From contig JACQZC010000053.1 of the NCBI GenBank assembly GCA_016207905.1, positions 1 to 58,048 of the forward strand: 58,048 nucleotides of DNA, in the 5' to 3' direction. This document shows positions 14 through 57,914 of the stretch, in pieces (within the stretch, counting starts at the first letter, position 1; each line of letters opens with the position of its first letter). The position numbers were made by a program, and so were the translations under genes. The notes under the pieces are model-generated. The model was not told where the DNA came from. It made no database searches and saw only the letters and a program-made list of their open reading frames with translations. The DNA is from Nitrospirota bacterium (GTDB lineage: Bacteria; Nitrospirota; Thermodesulfovibrionia; Thermodesulfovibrionales; JdFR-86).

Positions 14-172
14 GACAGGCTCAGGGCGACGAAAGAGGAGACAGAGGGTGGAGAAGTGCAAATAAAATGCATAAAAGTGAACCAAAACGGAACTAAACGG
101 AACTAAAATGGAAGCAGGAATCATTAAAAATCAATGGGTTAGGGGACACCCCCCCCTACCCTATAAATCAAG
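14..172 (+). repeat. Dispersed leader repeat, copy 1
   Basis: About 155 bases here are nearly identical to 9086-9246, and the last third also matches 16575-16650. The segment holds a tandem pair of the 10-mer CGGAACTAAA (about 89-108), then a TTAGGG arm, a C-run and a CCCTATAA arm that can close a hairpin with a C-rich loop. It lies directly upstream of the NtrC-like gene. The first 40 bases also carry GCTCAGGGCGAC twice, a common interspersed repeat motif. Any promoter would lie outside the window. Confidence 0.8.
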
Positions 173-7951: not shown

Positions 7952-8062
7952 TTGAGATTCTGAAATAAATTCAGAATGACAGACCCTTTCCCTGTCACCC
8001 TGAACTTGTTTCAGGGTCTAATGAGATGCTGAACTGAGATGCTGAAACAAGTTCAGCATGAC
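7952..8062. repeat. Cluster of palindromic interspersed repeats
   Basis: Three short inverted-repeat units: ATTCTGAAATAAATTCAGAAT, then CCCTGAACTTGTTTCAGGG, then GATGCTGAAACAAGTTCAGC, each linked to a TGACA or TGTCA motif. They are the kind whose translation gives HPELVSG/HAELVSAS peptides. A similar cluster lies at 8819-8990 on the other side of hicBA. Confidence 0.85.
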
Positions 8063-8264
8063 AATGCCTTTGGGCATTGCAGATAGAATGTATCCGGTGC
8101 AGATAACAGAATAATACAATTCTGGGGACACCATACTTAATTTCAGCCCGACAATAATTAAGGCGATTCTTTTGGATGTGGAATAATACGAATACATGGT
8201 TGCAGTGTTTCAGAAGCAAAAACGACTTGCCAAGAACGGCTTGATGCGGAACTTCTGTGGCTTT
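8063..8264. other. Intergenic stretch with a possible transposase-element scar
   Basis: No gene supported. At about 8121-8143 the bases CTGGGGACACCATACTTAATT occur; from memory this motif borders REP-associated IS200-like transposase genes in many genomes, but no transposase coding remains. The open frame on the minus strand (8219-7995) is repeat-derived. Confidence 0.35.
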
Positions 8265-8510
8265 TTAGTCAAAAAGCTCTTTACATAGTTTCAGAAAATC
8301 TATTTTAAGGTATGAGGCGACATCCTTAAGGATACCACTTAAAGTGCCGACTTTTAGGGTCTTATGTGCAGGTATGGTGATGCGATGTTGCCTGCCTTTT
8401 ATTGACGATACCAGCCTGACATGGCTGCCTGTCTGGTGTATTGTTTGATAACCGTATTTTGCAAGAAGTGAAGCAAGTGCATAGCCACCGATGTCCCGTG
8501 GCAGTTTCAT
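8265..8510 (-). CDS. hicA: HicA-type mRNA interferase toxin
   Basis: An 81-residue HicA/YcfA family protein: short, basic, double-stranded-RNA-binding-like fold. The conserved core is present: N-terminal helix (LASLLAKYGYQ), then TGSHVRLV with the catalytic His, then HRITIPAHKTLKVGTLSGIL. HicA cleaves mRNA and is blocked by HicB. The gene overlaps the upstream antitoxin by 4 bases (ATGA-type), so the antitoxin is translated first. The module is bounded on both sides by palindromic repeat clusters. Confidence 0.88.
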   Translation of the reverse strand: MKLPRDIGGYALASLLAKYGYQTIHQTGSHVRLVSSIKGRQHRITIPAHKTLKVGTLSGILKDVASYLKIDFLKLCKELFD

Positions 8511-8716
8511 ACGGCAAGAAGTTCTTCTGTTACCATATGCAAGCGTATTATTTTAGGTCTATCCTGCTCGTCGAAATGACACAGGACGGCATCATGAACC
8601 ATTTTTTTAAGTTCTTCAAGTGTATCAGCCTCGGTAAAGATTGAATGACCTAATGCCTTAGCCTCATAACCTCCTTCTAAAGATTCCTCGATAACAAAGA
8701 TAACTTCTTTTTCCAT
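8507..8716 (-). CDS. hicB: HicB-like antitoxin
   Basis: A 69-residue partner of HicA. It has the partial RNase H-like HicB core: VIFVIEESLEGGYEAKALGH, then TEADTLEELKKMVHDAVLCHF. There is no C-terminal helix-turn-helix, so any autoregulation would need another route. The frame is open back to 8803, but ATG 8716 has AGAGGTG at the right distance and removes a Lys/Cys-rich unrelated extension, so it is chosen. A promoter lies at 8747-8776. Confidence 0.82.
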   Translation of the reverse strand: MEKEVIFVIEESLEGGYEAKALGHSIFTEADTLEELKKMVHDAVLCHFDEQDRPKIIRLHMVTEELLAV

Positions 8717-8746
8717 ATCGCACCTCTTCTTATCTATATATATCCG

Positions 8747-8776
8747 ATTATAACAGGTAACCTTCTTTAGTGGCAA
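8747..8776 (-). promoter_or_regulatory. Predicted promoter of hicBA
   Basis: On the minus strand TTGCCA (8776-8771) and TATAAT (8752-8747) are separated by 18 bases, about 30 bases before the hicB start. Confidence 0.6.
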
Positions 8777-8818
8777 TATATTGGGAGGAGAATAAAAGAG
8801 CAACAGAGCAGGAGTAAC

Positions 8819-8990
8819 TGAGATTCTGAAATAAATTCAGAATGACAAATCGGTTTGCAGATATTCAATACTGTCACCCTGAACTCGTTTCAGGGTCTTA
8901 TAACCAGTTGATTTTATTAGATGCTGAAATAAATTCAGCATGACAGGCTGAGATTGCTTCTGCCGAGGCATCGGCATCGCAATGACAGAA
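8819..8990. repeat. Second cluster of palindromic interspersed repeats
   Basis: Contains ATTCTGAAATAAATTCAGAAT again, CCCTGAACTCGTTTCAGGG, GATGCTGAAATAAATTCAGC and an ATTGCTTC...GCATCGCAATGACA unit. The last unit is the same type found inside the DUF4384 gene at 54872-54912. No gene supported in 8820-9019. Confidence 0.85.
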
Positions 8991-9085: not shown

Positions 9086-9246
9086 GACAGGCTCAGAAAG
9101 ACGAAAGAGGAGACAGAGAGTGCAGAAGTGCAAATAAAATGCATAAAAGTGAACCAAAACGGAACTAAACGGAACTAAAATGGAAGCAGGAATCATTAAA
9201 AATCAATGGGTTATGAGGCACCCCCCCTCCCTATAAACTAAAGCAA
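9086..9246 (+). repeat. Dispersed leader repeat, copy 2
   Basis: Near-identical to 14-172 over about 155 bases, including the tandem CGGAACTAAA pair. The core TTATGAGGCACCCCCCC...CCTATAA can close a stem with a C-rich loop. It lies between a strong promoter and the 13-heme cytochrome gene. Bases 9247-9350 hold no recognisable feature besides AT-rich sequence. Confidence 0.85.
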
Positions 9247-16574: not shown

Positions 16575-16650
16575 ACATGGGAATCCTTAAAAATCAAGGG
16601 GTTATGAGGCACCCCCCCCACCCCATAAACTAAAGCAAAGGGATGATGAA
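16575..16650 (+). repeat. Dispersed leader repeat, partial copy 3
   Basis: Matches the 3' third of the copies at 14-172 and 9086-9246: TTAAAAATCAA, then GGGGTTATGAGGCACCCC, then CATAAACTAAAGCAAA. TTATG and CATAA can pair around the C-rich loop. It lies about 90 bases before the PilZ gene and downstream of a strong promoter. Confidence 0.75.
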
Positions 16651-53829: not shown

Positions 53830-53902
53830 GCGGGTGTAGCTCAGTTGGTAGAGCACAACCTTGCCAAGGTTGGGGTCGCGGGTTCAAGTCCCGTCGCCCG
53901 CT
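53830..53902 (+). tRNA. tRNA-Gly (GCC)
   Basis: 73 bases folding as a cloverleaf: acceptor GCGGGTG with CGCCCGC, D arm with TAGCTCAGTTGGTAGAGC, anticodon loop CTTGCCAAG giving GCC, and TPsiC GGGTTCAAGTCCC. No encoded CCA. Confidence 0.97.
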
Positions 53903-53989: not shown

Positions 53990-54062
53990 GGCGGCGTACC
54001 CAAGTGGCTAAGGGAGAGGTCTGCAAAACCTCGATGCATCGGTTCAAATCCGATCGCCGCCT
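53990..54062 (+). tRNA. tRNA-Cys (GCA)
   Basis: 73 bases: acceptor GGCGGCG with CGCCGCC, anticodon loop CTGCAAA giving GCA, TPsiC CGGTTCAAATCCG. No encoded CCA. It converges on the DUF4384 gene, whose stop lies 6 bases away. Confidence 0.97.
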
Positions 54063-54068
54063 CTTTAA

Positions 54069-54929
54069 CTATCTCGTTAAAATATACCCTGCGCCTGCCT
54101 CTGTCCACTCTGAAGGCTCAATCTGATTAAGCCTTCTTACGAGGTCGCTTATCATGCCTGTGGATTTTGCATCATAGACTTTAAACATTCCTTCCTGAAA
54201 TCCTAATGAAACAAGCTCTTCTTTTTTCTTTGTGGCTATGACCTTAATCCATTCTTCAGCAGTATTTTCCCTGTATTCAGGAAGAAAAAGTGCCTTCAGT
54301 CTTATCGAACTTTTTAGAGGCGGAAACTCGTATGGCTCCCCTGCCTTTATGAAATTTTCCCGATTCACAGAATTCGGCAAAAGCACTGTTACAGAGCCAT
54401 CTACTGCAACTGAGAATATATAAACATAACAATCCGAGCTTGCCTGATAGAAGAGCTTTACCTCCTCGCCTTCTTTTAGCTCTGTCTTTGAAAGCGAGAG
54501 TTTTATGGAAATCCCCTCACCTTTTTCAGGATAAACAGGTATGATGAGTGCCTTTAAACTGACCTTGTAGAGGAATCTGTCTTTTTCATCCCAGCCCTCT
54601 TTTATAATTTCAATTTTATCTATTTTACCCCTCACACTTGCATATATGAGGTCTTCCTTAAGCTGACTGTTTGACACAAGGGTATGTGACCTTATGAATG
54701 TGCCGACTGCCTCTTCAATTGCCTTTCTCTGGGCGTCCTTTTTTGCACGCTCTTTTACCTCTTTTGGGGTGTCAAGCTCACCCATGTAGGCTTCGCCCTC
54801 TGCAGTAACCCAGATAGGTGCAGAAGAGGCAAAGACACTTGACGCAAATAAGAAAGCGCCGATGATTAGTGTCATTGCGAGTCCTGATGCTTCGGGGCGA
54901 AGCAATCTATTGCTTTGGGTATGCTTCAT
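54069..54929 (-). CDS. DUF4384 domain protein, secreted
   Basis: About 286 residues. An export signal (MTLIIGAFLFASSVFASSA) is preceded by ~18 odd residues encoded by a palindromic repeat (54872-54912). A central stretch with ERAKKDAQRKAIEEAVGTF resembles LPP20/FlgT-like N-terminal regions. Then the DUF4384 domain: LSKTELKEGEEVKLFYQASSDCYVYIF, VTVLLPN and ENFIKAGEPYEFP. DUF4384 is often fused or linked to caspase-like domains. Here the ATG at 54929 overlaps the TGA of the caspase-like gene, so the two are coupled. Confidence 0.85.
   Translation of the reverse strand: MKHTQSNRLLRPEASGLAMTLIIGAFLFASSVFASSAPIWVTAEGEAYMGELDTPKEVKERAKKDAQRKAIEEAVGTFIRSHTLVSNSQLKEDLIYASVRGKIDKIEIIKEGWDEKDRFLYKVSLKALIIPVYPEKGEGISIKLSLSKTELKEGEEVKLFYQASSDCYVYIFSVAVDGSVTVLLPNSVNRENFIKAGEPYEFPPLKSSIRLKALFLPEYRENTAEEWIKVIATKKKEELVSLGFQEGMFKVYDAKSTGMISDLVRRLNQIEPSEWTEAGAGYILTR
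54872..54912. repeat. Palindromic repeat in frame inside the DUF4384 gene
   Basis: On the minus strand AGATTGCTTCGCCCCGAAGC and then ACTCGCAATGACA match the unit at 8951-8987 (AGATTGCTTCTGCCGAGGCA..TCGCAATGACA). It contributes codons between the start and the signal peptide core. Confidence 0.75.
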
Positions 54930-56905
54930 CACTTTCTCAGGTTAAACCTTCCTCTCAGTTTCTCTATCTCCGGGCTTATGCTCGGAGACTGCTGAACATT
55001 AAGCTCCTTTGCCTCGTTTTCAACCAAAGGCTTTATATATTCATAAATCTCAGCAAGGCTCTTTTTGCCCTCTTTTAGTGCTTTAAGAAAATAATATGTG
55101 AATACCCCATGACCTCTTTCAGGATTAGATGTGCTTATATCAGTTCCCTGTGTTGAGGTCAAAACTGCCATGTTTTGAGGTAATATTAAACCCTCTACTG
55201 TCATCACCAATGGTCTTGCTCCTTTTGCTAAAACACTTCTTCCACCTGAGCCTGAAAAACAGGAATCCAAGACAACTACTACCTCAGCTACCTGCAATTT
55301 GCCCAGATTATCATAAAGCCTTTTTAATGGATACCCTGTAAGCTCAAGGTAATTAGGGTCTCCATCATATGGGACAAGATATGCATCACCTGTTTTTGGC
55401 TCTGGTGCACCATGTCCTGAGTAATAGACAAAAACACGACTTTCAGGCTTTGCCTTATTTTTTAGCCATCCCTCAATGGATTTTTCAATGCCTGATTTCG
55501 TTGCATCAGTGTTTGTTACAAATTGTATATTTCTTTCAGCAAAGCCCAATGCCTTAAGATATGCCTTCATTAATTTTGCATCATCATATGAGTAATCTGA
55601 TTTTGGGACATTCTTGTACTGCTCTATGCCGATTACAACAGCAATATCCATTGGGCTTACTACCTGCTCTGCGGTATTAAGGACCTGGACCGCATCTATA
55701 CCCTCAGAAGCCACAGGTGTAAAAAGTGGTGTCTCTTTAGCCTCCACTTTCACGACCTTTATTTCAGGAGCCTCCTTATTAAGGGCAAGCTTTATGTCAG
55801 GTCTCAGGGAAAACCTCTTTCGCTCCTCATCTATACTGAATGAGACAGGCAGGGTTTCAGCGCCGCTATATCTCTGTGTAACCGCTATGCTGAAAACAGC
55901 CTTCTTTGACTCGCCCGGATTAAGTATGCCGAGGACTACCTTATTGTCACCGAATACCTTGACATTGGGGTCCCCTGACTCTATTGTAACTACCACACCT
56001 CTTGCTATGCCCATGCCTGCATTCTGAACAGTAAGGGTTATATTAGTCTCCTTGCCTTTTGTGATGACCCTTCTTCCCTCAGAGTCCTCAATATTTAGTT
56101 TTGCGAGCTGTAAGACAGGTGGGATAAGCTGGCTCGTCTTAAAGGATAAAATCACAGGCTGGGAGTCAAAGCCTCCTGACTCTATAAGGGTTGCCTTTAA
56201 ACTAACATCCTTTGTTAAAAGAGCCTCATCTGCGGATATATCTATAGAGACTGTTTTTTCCTCATTAGGGTTTATGTTGCCGATAGAGGTCTCTTTAGCA
56301 AAACTCATGCCCTTAACTGACTCATTCGGGATAAGTCTGATGTGGACATCAAATGCTGTGCCTTTACCTGTGTTTTTAGCCTTTATAAAGATTGTCCCTT
56401 TTTCTTCTGCGTCAAGGATATTGTTTCCTGAAGGCTCGGAAAAAGTTAGAGAGACTATGTCAATTACAGGTGGAGCCTTCTGTGGAGGGGGAGTCTTCTG
56501 TTGAGCAATATATTTACCTTCCATTGCATACCCAAGCAGGGAAACAATCTCTGTACGACCATTCTTTACCGCATATATCAAAGCAGTATTGCCAAAATTG
56601 TTTTTTGCATTCACATTGGCGCCTTTGTTAAGAAGGGTCTGGACAATCTCTGTATGACCACCCACTGCCGCATACATCAAAGCAGTATTGCCATTATTGT
56701 CTTTTGCATTCACATCAGCACCATGCTGTAAGAGACTTTTAACTTTATTAATATCACCCTTTTCTGCCGCCCTTCTCAGGTCATCATTAATGTCTGCATA
56801 AATAGTAAGGGGAATAAAGAGCGCAGAGATAAGCAGGGCAAGGGTTAAGACAATTGAGATTCCGAAACAAGTTCGGAATGACATAAGCGAAAATACCTTT
56901 TTCAT
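54929..56905 (-). CDS. Secreted caspase-like (C14) protein with ankyrin repeats and CARDB-like domains
   Basis: A 658-residue exported protein. After the signal peptide come about three ankyrin repeats (35-130: LRRAAEKGDINKVKSLLQHG, then GNTALMYAAVGGHTEIVQTL). Next is a Pro-rich linker and two Ig-like CARDB/NPCBM-like segments (about 140-390: GKGTAFDVHIRL, GMGIARGVVV). A caspase-like peptidase follows at about 430-650, with the catalytic pair H498 (YYSGHG) and C549 (LDSCFSG). Both are intact, so a metacaspase-like Arg/Lys-directed protease is likely. The frame is open from 56947, but ATG 56905 has AGGAGGT. The signal peptide is partly encoded by a palindromic repeat (56856-56884). Coupled to the DUF4384 gene. 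Confidence 0.9.
   Translation of the reverse strand: MKKVFSLMSFRTCFGISIVLTLALLISALFIPLTIYADINDDLRRAAEKGDINKVKSLLQHGADVNAKDNNGNTALMYAAVGGHTEIVQTLLNKGANVNAKNNFGNTALIYAVKNGRTEIVSLLGYAMEGKYIAQQKTPPPQKAPPVIDIVSLTFSEPSGNNILDAEEKGTIFIKAKNTGKGTAFDVHIRLIPNESVKGMSFAKETSIGNINPNEEKTVSIDISADEALLTKDVSLKATLIESGGFDSQPVILSFKTSQLIPPVLQLAKLNIEDSEGRRVITKGKETNITLTVQNAGMGIARGVVVTIESGDPNVKVFGDNKVVLGILNPGESKKAVFSIAVTQRYSGAETLPVSFSIDEERKRFSLRPDIKLALNKEAPEIKVVKVEAKETPLFTPVASEGIDAVQVLNTAEQVVSPMDIAVVIGIEQYKNVPKSDYSYDDAKLMKAYLKALGFAERNIQFVTNTDATKSGIEKSIEGWLKNKAKPESRVFVYYSGHGAPEPKTGDAYLVPYDGDPNYLELTGYPLKRLYDNLGKLQVAEVVVVLDSCFSGSGGRSVLAKGARPLVMTVEGLILPQNMAVLTSTQGTDISTSNPERGHGVFTYYFLKALKEGKKSLAEIYEYIKPLVENEAKELNVQQSPSISPEIEKLRGRFNLRK
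56856..56884. repeat. Palindromic repeat inside the caspase-like signal peptide
   Basis: GATTCCGAAACAAGTTCGGAAT plus TGACA, the same type as 7952-8062. On the minus strand it is read as MSFRTCFGIS within the signal peptide and does not break the frame. Confidence 0.85.
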
Positions 56906-57119
56906 AAGAGACCTCCTGAAATTGTCATCATACACCCTATCTGTCATGCTGTCCCGACACTTCGGGATTCAGCATCTCAGTTTAGCATCTCTTAGACCCT
57001 GAAATAAATTCAGGGTGACAAAATATAAAAACCTTTTTCATAAAACCCTACTTAAATGTCATTATATCAGAAAGATTCCTGACAAGCAGGAATGACGGAA
57101 GCGGAAAAGCCTTTTTCAT
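56906..57119 (-). repeat. Tandem start-codon segments with palindromic repeats
   Basis: On the minus strand ATGAAAAAGG occurs three times (starts at 57119, 57041 and 56905), each after a ribosome-site-like or T-rich stretch and each followed by a palindromic unit. The first two give short frames of 23 and 19 codons (57119-57048, 57041-56982), and the third is the caspase-like gene. The second frame reads through a HPEFISGS-type repeat. Confidence 0.75.
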
Positions 57120-57166
57120 AAACCCCTCCTTAAAAACTCTTTCCTTTAAGTAAAAGGCTAAAGAAG

Positions 57167-57697: not shown

Positions 57698-57914
57698 TTA
57701 CCAATCGCTAAAGCCAATACCAAAAGTAAAAGATGCTTGCATCAAAGCAGTCCTGCCATCATTCTTTTTTGCATTCACATCAGCACCTTTGTTAAGGAGT
57801 TCTTTAATTTTGGCAATATTACCTTGTTTTGCTGCATCAAACATCTCAGCATTAATGCCTGCATAAATGGAAAGGGGAACAAAAAGCACAGAGATAAGCA
57901 GGAATAGGACGCCA
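57698..57914 (-). pseudogene. Ankyrin-repeat gene truncated by the IS30-type element
   Basis: The minus strand reads from an open frame without start (LFLLISVLFVPLSIYAG, a signal-peptide end) into one ankyrin repeat (AEMFDAAKQGNIAKIKELLN, then TALMQAS) and then diverges to a stop (FTFGIGFSDW). It resembles the N-terminus of the caspase-like protein. The 5' end is lost where the IS30-type sequence begins (about 57905), and the 3' end is also broken. Confidence 0.7.

What the first reader, a model, noticed from the sequence alone, without database searches (positions are those of the whole stretch)
54872..56884. Palindromic repeats captured in two signal-peptide coding regions
Units of the same families that lie between genes elsewhere are found in frame in the N-terminal coding regions of both adjacent secreted proteins (54872-54912 and 56856-56884). 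Signal peptides tolerate sequence change, so they may serve as landing sites. It resembles the Rickettsia palindromic elements found inside genes.
Basis: partly seen in the sequence, partly recalled or inferred. Interest (0 to 1): 0.6.

Follow-up and report, generated by a model that had tools for sequence, protein, structure and literature searches.

The report
Palindromic repeats inside signal peptides
Short hairpin-forming DNA repeats that normally sit between genes have inserted, in frame, into the disposable export tags of two neighbouring secreted proteins, and relatives of these proteins in other bacteria have taken up different repeats at the same spot.

Summary
A 26-bp A-type palindrome (60 copies with at most 2 mismatches genome-wide, reversed-pattern control 0) lies in frame at 56857-56882, in the signal peptide (SP) of an ankyrin-caspase protein. 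A B-type unit (21 exact copies, control 0) lies at 54871-54908, in the SP of the DUF4384 protein downstream. Orthologues elsewhere carry different palindromes in or just after the same SP: at least five distinct insert kinds in 10 of 60 tree rows. The ankyrin gene too has orthologues with and without an insert. The units fit the CGTC-type REP description in tag, and A in stem and loop, but not in tail or dimer orientation. SPs are not the only sites: the YggS linker, membrane-protein loops and a prepilin leader are also hit. Best reading: REP-like elements insert broadly, and in-frame copies survive where extra residues are tolerated. Against a strict SP preference: 0 of 2 clear in-gene B units in relative G018 lie in an SP. 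In-gene REPs are known; recurrence at one SP and apparent swapping of insert-bearing SP modules look new.

The parts
54072..54929 (-). g1: secreted DUF4384 protein, 286 aa; ATG overlaps the stop of g2 (TGATG)
   Evidence: translation; Pfam PF14326 E=8e-20
54871..54908 (+). B-type palindromic unit (TGTC tag), in frame in the SP coding region of g1 (codons 8-20)
   Evidence: absent from repeat-free orthologues
54932..56905 (-). g2: secreted ankyrin-repeat and caspase-domain protein, 658 aa
   Evidence: translation; Pfam Ank_4 E=1.2e-25, Peptidase_C14 E=2.4e-20
56857..56882 (-). A-type palindromic unit (8-bp stem, 5-base loop, TGTC tag), in frame in the SP coding region of g2
56906..56918 (-). 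Shine-Dalgarno region of g2 (AGGAGGTCTCTT before the ATG)
   Evidence: duplex energy -9.5 kcal/mol against -4.0 at the internal ATG
56994..57019 (-). intergenic A unit upstream of g2
57027..57134 (-). two partial, broken copies of the g2 gene start (MKKxF), the upstream one followed by another palindrome (GTCATTCCTGCTTGTCAGGAATCT)
   Evidence: direct repeats D7 and D12, translation
57698..57889 (-). 5'-truncated ankyrin paralogue that lost the repeat-bearing SP start
7955..8944 (.). intergenic cluster of six A units

Best explanation
The units are REP-like palindromic repeats, closest to the CGTC type, that accumulate mainly between genes. Now and then one lands inside a gene. Copies are kept only where its length keeps the frame, its frame has no stop and the added residues (roughly 8-16) do no harm. 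The n-region of a cleaved signal peptide is such a site, and so are prepilin leaders, loops between membrane helices and surface linkers. In g1 and g2 the repeat is translated as part of the SP and, if the SP is cleaved as predicted, removed from the mature protein. Shown: repeat identity, reading frame, orthologues without the insert, recurrence with unrelated palindromes. Inferred: translation, SP cleavage, neutrality, and how the units move.
For: Copy numbers and zero controls. Repeat-free g1 orthologues have plain SPs, e.g. MTRLFAAILLLLPVISFA in G114 and MKRFLIIILFLMPVLSFA in G027. Other orthologues carry a different palindrome in the same SP: B unit RLLRLCLAMT in Nitrospinota L172; an ATTCCGC-type pair in G018, splitting an SP whose start MRRLFAVILL resembles that of G114; a CCCCCTT-type unit in L178/G098; multi-unit inserts in L171, L182 and L198; CCCC-type units just after the SP in L180 and L218. 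On the g1 tree insert against no insert needs at least 9 changes. In 71 g1 proteins no other inserts of 5 aa or more were found in the mature body, apart from those right after the SP, one C-terminal tail (L176) and one damaged row (L226). Stems of 9 or more were found in 8 of 35 N-terminal windows against 0, 0 and 2 of 35 in three body windows. g2: G018 and G114 carry a CCCC palindrome in the SP, while G016 reads MKMKDSLISLISVIFILLVG without it. Shine-Dalgarno energy is better at the upstream ATG than at the ATG inside the insert in L172, L171, L182, G016, G018 and g2. Tolerance elsewhere: own YggS has 29 residues between ENR and WH where the other scored relatives have 17-25, except G036 with 32 through an unrelated insert in the same linker.
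Against: No protein evidence. The Shine-Dalgarno site of g1 in this genome is weak (-3.2 against -2.5 inside the insert), and in L198 an ATG inside the insert scores slightly better than the upstream one (-3.0 against -2.6), so a start inside the repeat is not excluded there. In several g1 lineages the insert ends in an in-frame ATGAC right before the hydrophobic core, which would also fit a start codon supplied by the repeat. A units are less often open than shuffled sequence (2.57 of 6 frames against 3.51). The starred branches of the tree force only 3 changes. B units exist in 6 of 61 genomes without any Y1 transposase hit and the counts do not correlate (rho 0.20, p 0.12), so the mover is unknown.
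Confidence: 0.75

Rival explanations
1. The units are really in 5' untranslated regions and gene starts are mis-set: translation starts at, or just after, the ATG that the unit carries (..AATGAC), so nothing is captured in the SP.
For: In G000, L172, L171, L182, L198, G016 and G018 the unit's ATG is in frame right before the hydrophobic core. In L198 an ATG inside the insert scores slightly better than the upstream one. Some N-terminal copies in this genome are of this kind or may be: C11 (real start MKKLLVIV downstream), C96 Cas1, possibly C80. PMC3733652 warns that many N-terminal REPs are extragenic through misannotation.
Against: Shine-Dalgarno energies favour the upstream start in most cases (L172 -5.6 against -1.4, L171 and L182 -5.6 against 0 at the ATGAC, G018 -5.8 against -1.9, g2 -9.5 against -4.0). 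The G018 insert splits an SP whose first ten residues (MRRLFAVILL) resemble those of repeat-free G114 (MTRLFAAILL). L178, the G018 g2 orthologue and the PilX-like leader have no well-placed later start in the stretch tested. MT-LIIGAFLF in G000 would lack a positively charged n-region.
Confidence: 0.15
2. Signal peptides are a preferred target: the mover or target choice directs palindromes to SP coding DNA.
For: Of six distinct in-gene sites I accept in this genome (g1 SP, g2 SP, PilX-like leader, YggS linker, two membrane-protein loops) three are SPs or leaders, while SP-like codons are about 2% of coding codons by a liberal heuristic. The g1 SP was hit repeatedly.
Against: Most copies are intergenic. 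In G018 0 of the 2 clear in-gene B copies are in an SP. YggS and membrane-protein loops are hit repeatedly too. The numbers are small and post hoc.
Confidence: 0.08
3. The insert is kept because it does something, for example an mRNA hairpin near the start codon tuning translation, or a slower or altered SP.
For: Recurrent capture at one gene in several lineages; stem-forming sequence at the 5' end.
Against: No shared sequence or position among the inserts, and repeat-free orthologues are the majority: 50 of 60 tree rows carry no scored insert, at least four of them because the N-terminus is missing. No expression data.
Confidence: 0.12

Closest known systems
CGTC-tagged REPs (Di Nocera et al. 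2013, PMC3733652; abstract, sections 6, 13, 15 and the first part of 17 read)
   Same: TGTC/CGTC tag; A unit has an 8-bp stem beginning AT and a 5-base loop; mostly intergenic; in-frame copies inside genes, including N-termini and presumed loops
   Different: A-unit tail is CT rather than CCA; neighbouring A units are mostly tail to tail (11 pairs against 2 head to head, counted by hand from the list) where the paper reports head to head; B units have only a 5-bp outer stem and longer inner parts. A text search of the paper gave 2 hits for 'signal', neither about signal peptides, and none for 'leader'.
Rickettsia palindromic elements (RPE; Ogata et al. 2000 and 2002 recalled, not held; described in PMC2229807, passages read)
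   Same: in-frame palindromes inside conserved protein genes as well as between genes; RPE-4 and RPE-6 are CGTC REPs
   Different: RPE proper is 105-146 bp against 26-45 bp here; different phylum
RU-2/YPAL in Yersinia YPO1552 (Delihas 2007, PMC2759123, passages read)
   Different: single case and a longer unit (168 bp); no recurrence by unrelated repeat families at the same orthologous SP was described in the passages read
GTAG REP and RAYT systems
   Same: the genome's single Y1 transposase gene (C75:29496-30014) is bracketed by GTAG-type hairpins and has B units nearby
   Different: A and B units lack the GTAG tag; 0 of 13 other Y1 loci checked had a B unit within the fetched flanks

Membership tests
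CGTC-tagged REP superfamily | unpaired CGTC, TGTC or CCTC tag at one end | tested here: met
   TGTC before both window units; CCGTC at C75:29361
CGTC-tagged REP superfamily | stem of 8-9 bp starting with AT, loop of 4-5 bases | tested here: inconclusive
   A unit met: ATTCCGAA-CTTGT-TTCGGAAT, with compensated stem variants ATTCTGAA/TTCAGAAT, ATGCTGAA/TTCAGCAT and ACCCTGAA/TTCAGGGT. B unit not met: outer stem ATTGC/GCAAT only, variable inner part
CGTC-tagged REP superfamily | CCA-like tail | tested here: not met
   A and B units end in CT; the paper says most, not all, fit CCA
CGTC-tagged REP superfamily | head-to-head dimers predominant | tested here: not met
   A units starting within 60 bp of each other: 11 +/- pairs (tail to tail) against 2 -/+ pairs, counted by hand from the 60 places
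CGTC-tagged REP superfamily | no dedicated transposase | tested here: inconclusive
   one Y1 gene in own genome with B units near it, but 6 of 26 B-bearing genomes lack any Y1 hit
Rickettsia palindromic element (in-gene type) | in-frame insertion in conserved protein genes relative to insert-free orthologues | tested here: met
   g1, YggS
Rickettsia palindromic element (in-gene type) | 100-150 bp unit of the RPE-1 kind | tested here: not met
   26-45 bp
GTAG REP | GTAG tag | tested here: not met
   no GTAG at the ends of A or B units
Rickettsia palindromic element (in-gene type) | translated product detected | not testable with these tools
   no proteome available

The most novel reading that the evidence does not exclude
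Palindromic repeats act as spare parts and recombination handles for signal peptides. B units read in one frame give a basic, hydrophobic start (RLLR..LAMT, RFLAMLGMT), and insert-bearing SP modules move between genes: L171, L182 and L198 share SP DNA at 91-98% identity over bodies at 74-75%, and the g2 5' cassette with its A unit recurs at C75, C57 and C14. Secreted proteins in this group of bacteria would thus exchange export tags through repeats.
Probability: 0.25. Interest if true: 0.65.

Novelty: new variant of a known kind. Interest (0 to 1): 0.48.

Why it matters
In-gene REPs have been listed before, with the warning that N-terminal ones may be misannotated. Here one orthologous signal peptide has gained different palindromes in different lineages, with insert-free orthologues for comparison. 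That makes a natural insertion experiment on how much sequence a signal peptide tolerates, and a way to date and trace repeat movement in bacteria for which the mover is unknown.

Tried and rejected
Census of exact B units in G018 with a codon-usage score: 106 matches in the loci fetched (the search listed 100 places of 120), 2 clearly inside genes, none in an SP. This goes against a strong SP preference.

Coding-potential idea (units shaped for translation): A units have fewer open frames than shuffled sequence (2.57 against 3.51) and B units more (4.71 against 3.87) (44 of the 60 A copies, those without mismatch, and all 21 B copies were given). Rejected as a general feature.

Y1 transposase as mover: one Y1 gene in own genome near B units looked promising, but there is no rank correlation over 61 genomes (rho 0.20, p 0.12), 6 B-bearing genomes lack Y1 hits, and none of 13 other Y1 loci has a B unit nearby. 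Left open.

Dropped from counts: C11 (5' UTR), C96 Cas1 (5' UTR, downstream ATG) and C80 (ambiguous start, TTG alternative). Short ORFs overlapping units at C19, C21, C22, C47, C62, C71 and C78 were taken as spurious. PDKxxQGQV in six g1 rows is palindrome-encoded in L182 and L187 but was not counted among the insert states. In one search, 35 of 60 rows were scored: 19 were dropped as too short at the N-terminus and 6 for lack of an anchor; most of the short ones carry no insert, so 8 of 35 overstates the share. In one search nine duplicate rows and two partial rows were left out. The loop comparison of the membrane-protein family by regular expression read only part of the rows.

Full report
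What is there. The window is contig C53 of a 2.03-Mb assembled genome. Named holders of g1 orthologues are mostly Thermodesulfovibrionales/Nitrospirota, Nitrospinota and Deltaproteobacteria assemblies. Two minus-strand genes overlap at TGATG. g2 (56905-54932) codes for an ankyrin-repeat and caspase-domain protein. g1 (54929-54072) codes for a DUF4384 protein. Both begin with a signal-peptide-like segment. In g2 an A-type palindrome lies at 56857-56882, and in g1 a B-type unit at 54871-54908, both read in frame.

The repeats. The A pattern occurs 60 times in the genome at up to 2 mismatches and the B pattern 21 times exactly; reversed-pattern controls gave 0 for both. Stem variants of A are compensated (ATTCTGAA/TTCAGAAT, ATGCTGAA/TTCAGCAT, ACCCTGAA/TTCAGGGT, ATTCCGAA/TTCGGAAT). 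The B pattern is present in 26 of 61 genomes searched (this one included), from 1 to 133 copies.

Where copies lie. In the own-genome loci, 57 A and 21 B copies could be scored for coding context; 7 had coding-like sequence in frame downstream, of which C11 is upstream of the true start. In-gene sites that I accept: g1 SP, g2 SP, a PilX_N protein leader (C50), the YggS linker (C68), and two loops of a membrane-protein family with copies at C3, C32, C36, C63 and C68. So three of six distinct sites are SPs or leaders, where SP-like codons make about 2% of coding codons by a liberal heuristic. The number is small and was formed after the fact.

Orthologues without the insert. g1: 12 close orthologues from 120 relatives align from about residue 16-27 of the window protein; one alignment starts earlier only because it runs into the upstream gene. 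Repeat-free ones read, for example, MTRLFAAILLLLPVISFA (G114), MKRFLIIILFLMPVLSFA (G027) and MKKVLIIILFLTPVFSFA (G063). g2-type: G016 reads MKMKDSLISLISVIFILLVG and G027 reads MKKLFLAVFFFSAFVFF without a palindrome, while G018 and G114 have a CCCC-type palindrome between the n-region and the same core (DNA seen for G018, protein for G114). YggS: the stretch between ENR and WH is 29 residues here and 17-25 in the other rows that could be scored, except G036 at 32, which has an unrelated insert (PPIPPLEKGGMKGG) in the same linker (30 of the 41 genomes were aligned).

Recurrence in g1. Among orthologues from two searches, palindromes in or right after the SP are of at least five kinds: a B unit alone (G000, L172, degenerate in G016/L081), B with further units (L171, L182, L198), an ATTCCGC-type pair (G018/L092), a CCCCCTT-type unit in the SP (G098/L178), and CCCC-type units right after the SP (L180, L218). 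A sixth, PDKxxQGQV, follows the SP in six rows and is encoded by a 9-bp perfect inverted repeat in L182 and L187. On a tree of 60 rows built from mature columns only, insert against no insert needs 9 changes; well-supported branches alone force 3. Stems of 9 or more occur in 8 of 35 N-terminal windows and in 0, 0 and 2 of 35 in three body windows; 25 of 60 rows could not be scored, most of them repeat-free.

Is it translated? The upstream start has the better Shine-Dalgarno energy in L172, L171, L182, G016, G018, g2, its C75 paralogue and the PilX-like gene. In G000 g1 the difference is small (-3.2 against -2.5) and the stop-start overlap is the main support; in L198 an ATG inside the insert is slightly better (-3.0 against -2.6). 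In G018 the insert splits an SP whose first residues resemble repeat-free G114, so the unit lies inside the SP. A unit-borne start cannot be excluded for g1 of this genome.

SP modules that move. L171, L182 and L198 share SP-coding DNA at 91.5-98.3% over 116-117 aligned bases, while their bodies are 73.6-75.4% identical; for L182 the upstream 300 bases are also only 69-70% identical to the others, whereas L171 and L198 share 90.6% there. On the tree their bodies lie on three separate branches. In the own genome the g2 5' cassette, ribosome-binding site, MKKVFS and A unit included, recurs with an ankyrin gene at C75 and as remnants at C57 and C14. This points to exchange or duplication of repeat-bearing 5' ends; repeat-mediated recombination is an inference.

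What moves the units. One Y1 transposase-like gene in the genome lies between GTAG-type hairpins with B units nearby, but over 61 genomes Y1 count and B count do not correlate and six B-bearing genomes have no hit. The mover is unknown.

Literature. PMC3733652 (abstract and sections 6, 13, 15 and part of 17 read) describes CGTC REPs, in-gene copies and the caution about N-termini. PMC2759123 and PMC2229807 (passages) describe a repeat forming part of a predicted SP in Yersinia. Search listings for REP with signal peptide, palindromic repeats with signal peptide and Rickettsia, REP with RAYT and coding sequence, Rickettsia palindromic with signal sequence and palindromic repeats in Nitrospirae genes showed no account of recurrent capture at one SP. 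The library lacks most subscription papers.

Verdict. It is best filed as in-frame insertion of CGTC-like REP units at tolerant sites, with signal peptides as one recurrent class of site, and with an unusual degree of convergence in one gene family.

Noticed in passing
G000 C68:9930-10655 (L078:2931-3656): YggS/PLP homeostasis protein (name by recall; Pfam Ala_racemase_N) carries an A unit in frame (CHAELVSAS) in a linker; relative G036 has an unrelated palindrome-like insert at the same place.
   Followed up: yes
G000 C3, C32, C36, C63, C68 (L039, L045, L046, L051, L052): A multi-copy polytopic membrane protein (TMTC-like by recall) has palindromes in two loops, up to five units in one loop at C63; different paralogues carry different repeat families in loop 2.
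   Followed up: partly
G000 C75:29496-30014 (L062:3496-4014): Single Y1 transposase-like gene bracketed by GTAG-type hairpins, the upstream one inside its own reading frame, with B units on both sides.
   Followed up: partly
L179, L182, L187, L194, L195, L197: PDKxxQGQV right after the signal peptide of g1 orthologues, encoded by a perfect 9-bp inverted repeat in two of them.
   Followed up: partly
window 57027-57134 and 57698-57889: Broken extra copies of the g2 gene start and a truncated ankyrin paralogue upstream of g2, suggesting repeated duplication of this 5' end.
   Followed up: partly
window 14-155, 9086-9227, 16580-16618: Another intergenic repeat (up to 142 bp, ending in a run of C), 92-95% alike between copies.
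   Followed up: no
window 53830-53902 and 53990-54063: tRNA-Gly(gcc) and tRNA-Cys(gca) immediately downstream of g1.
   Followed up: no
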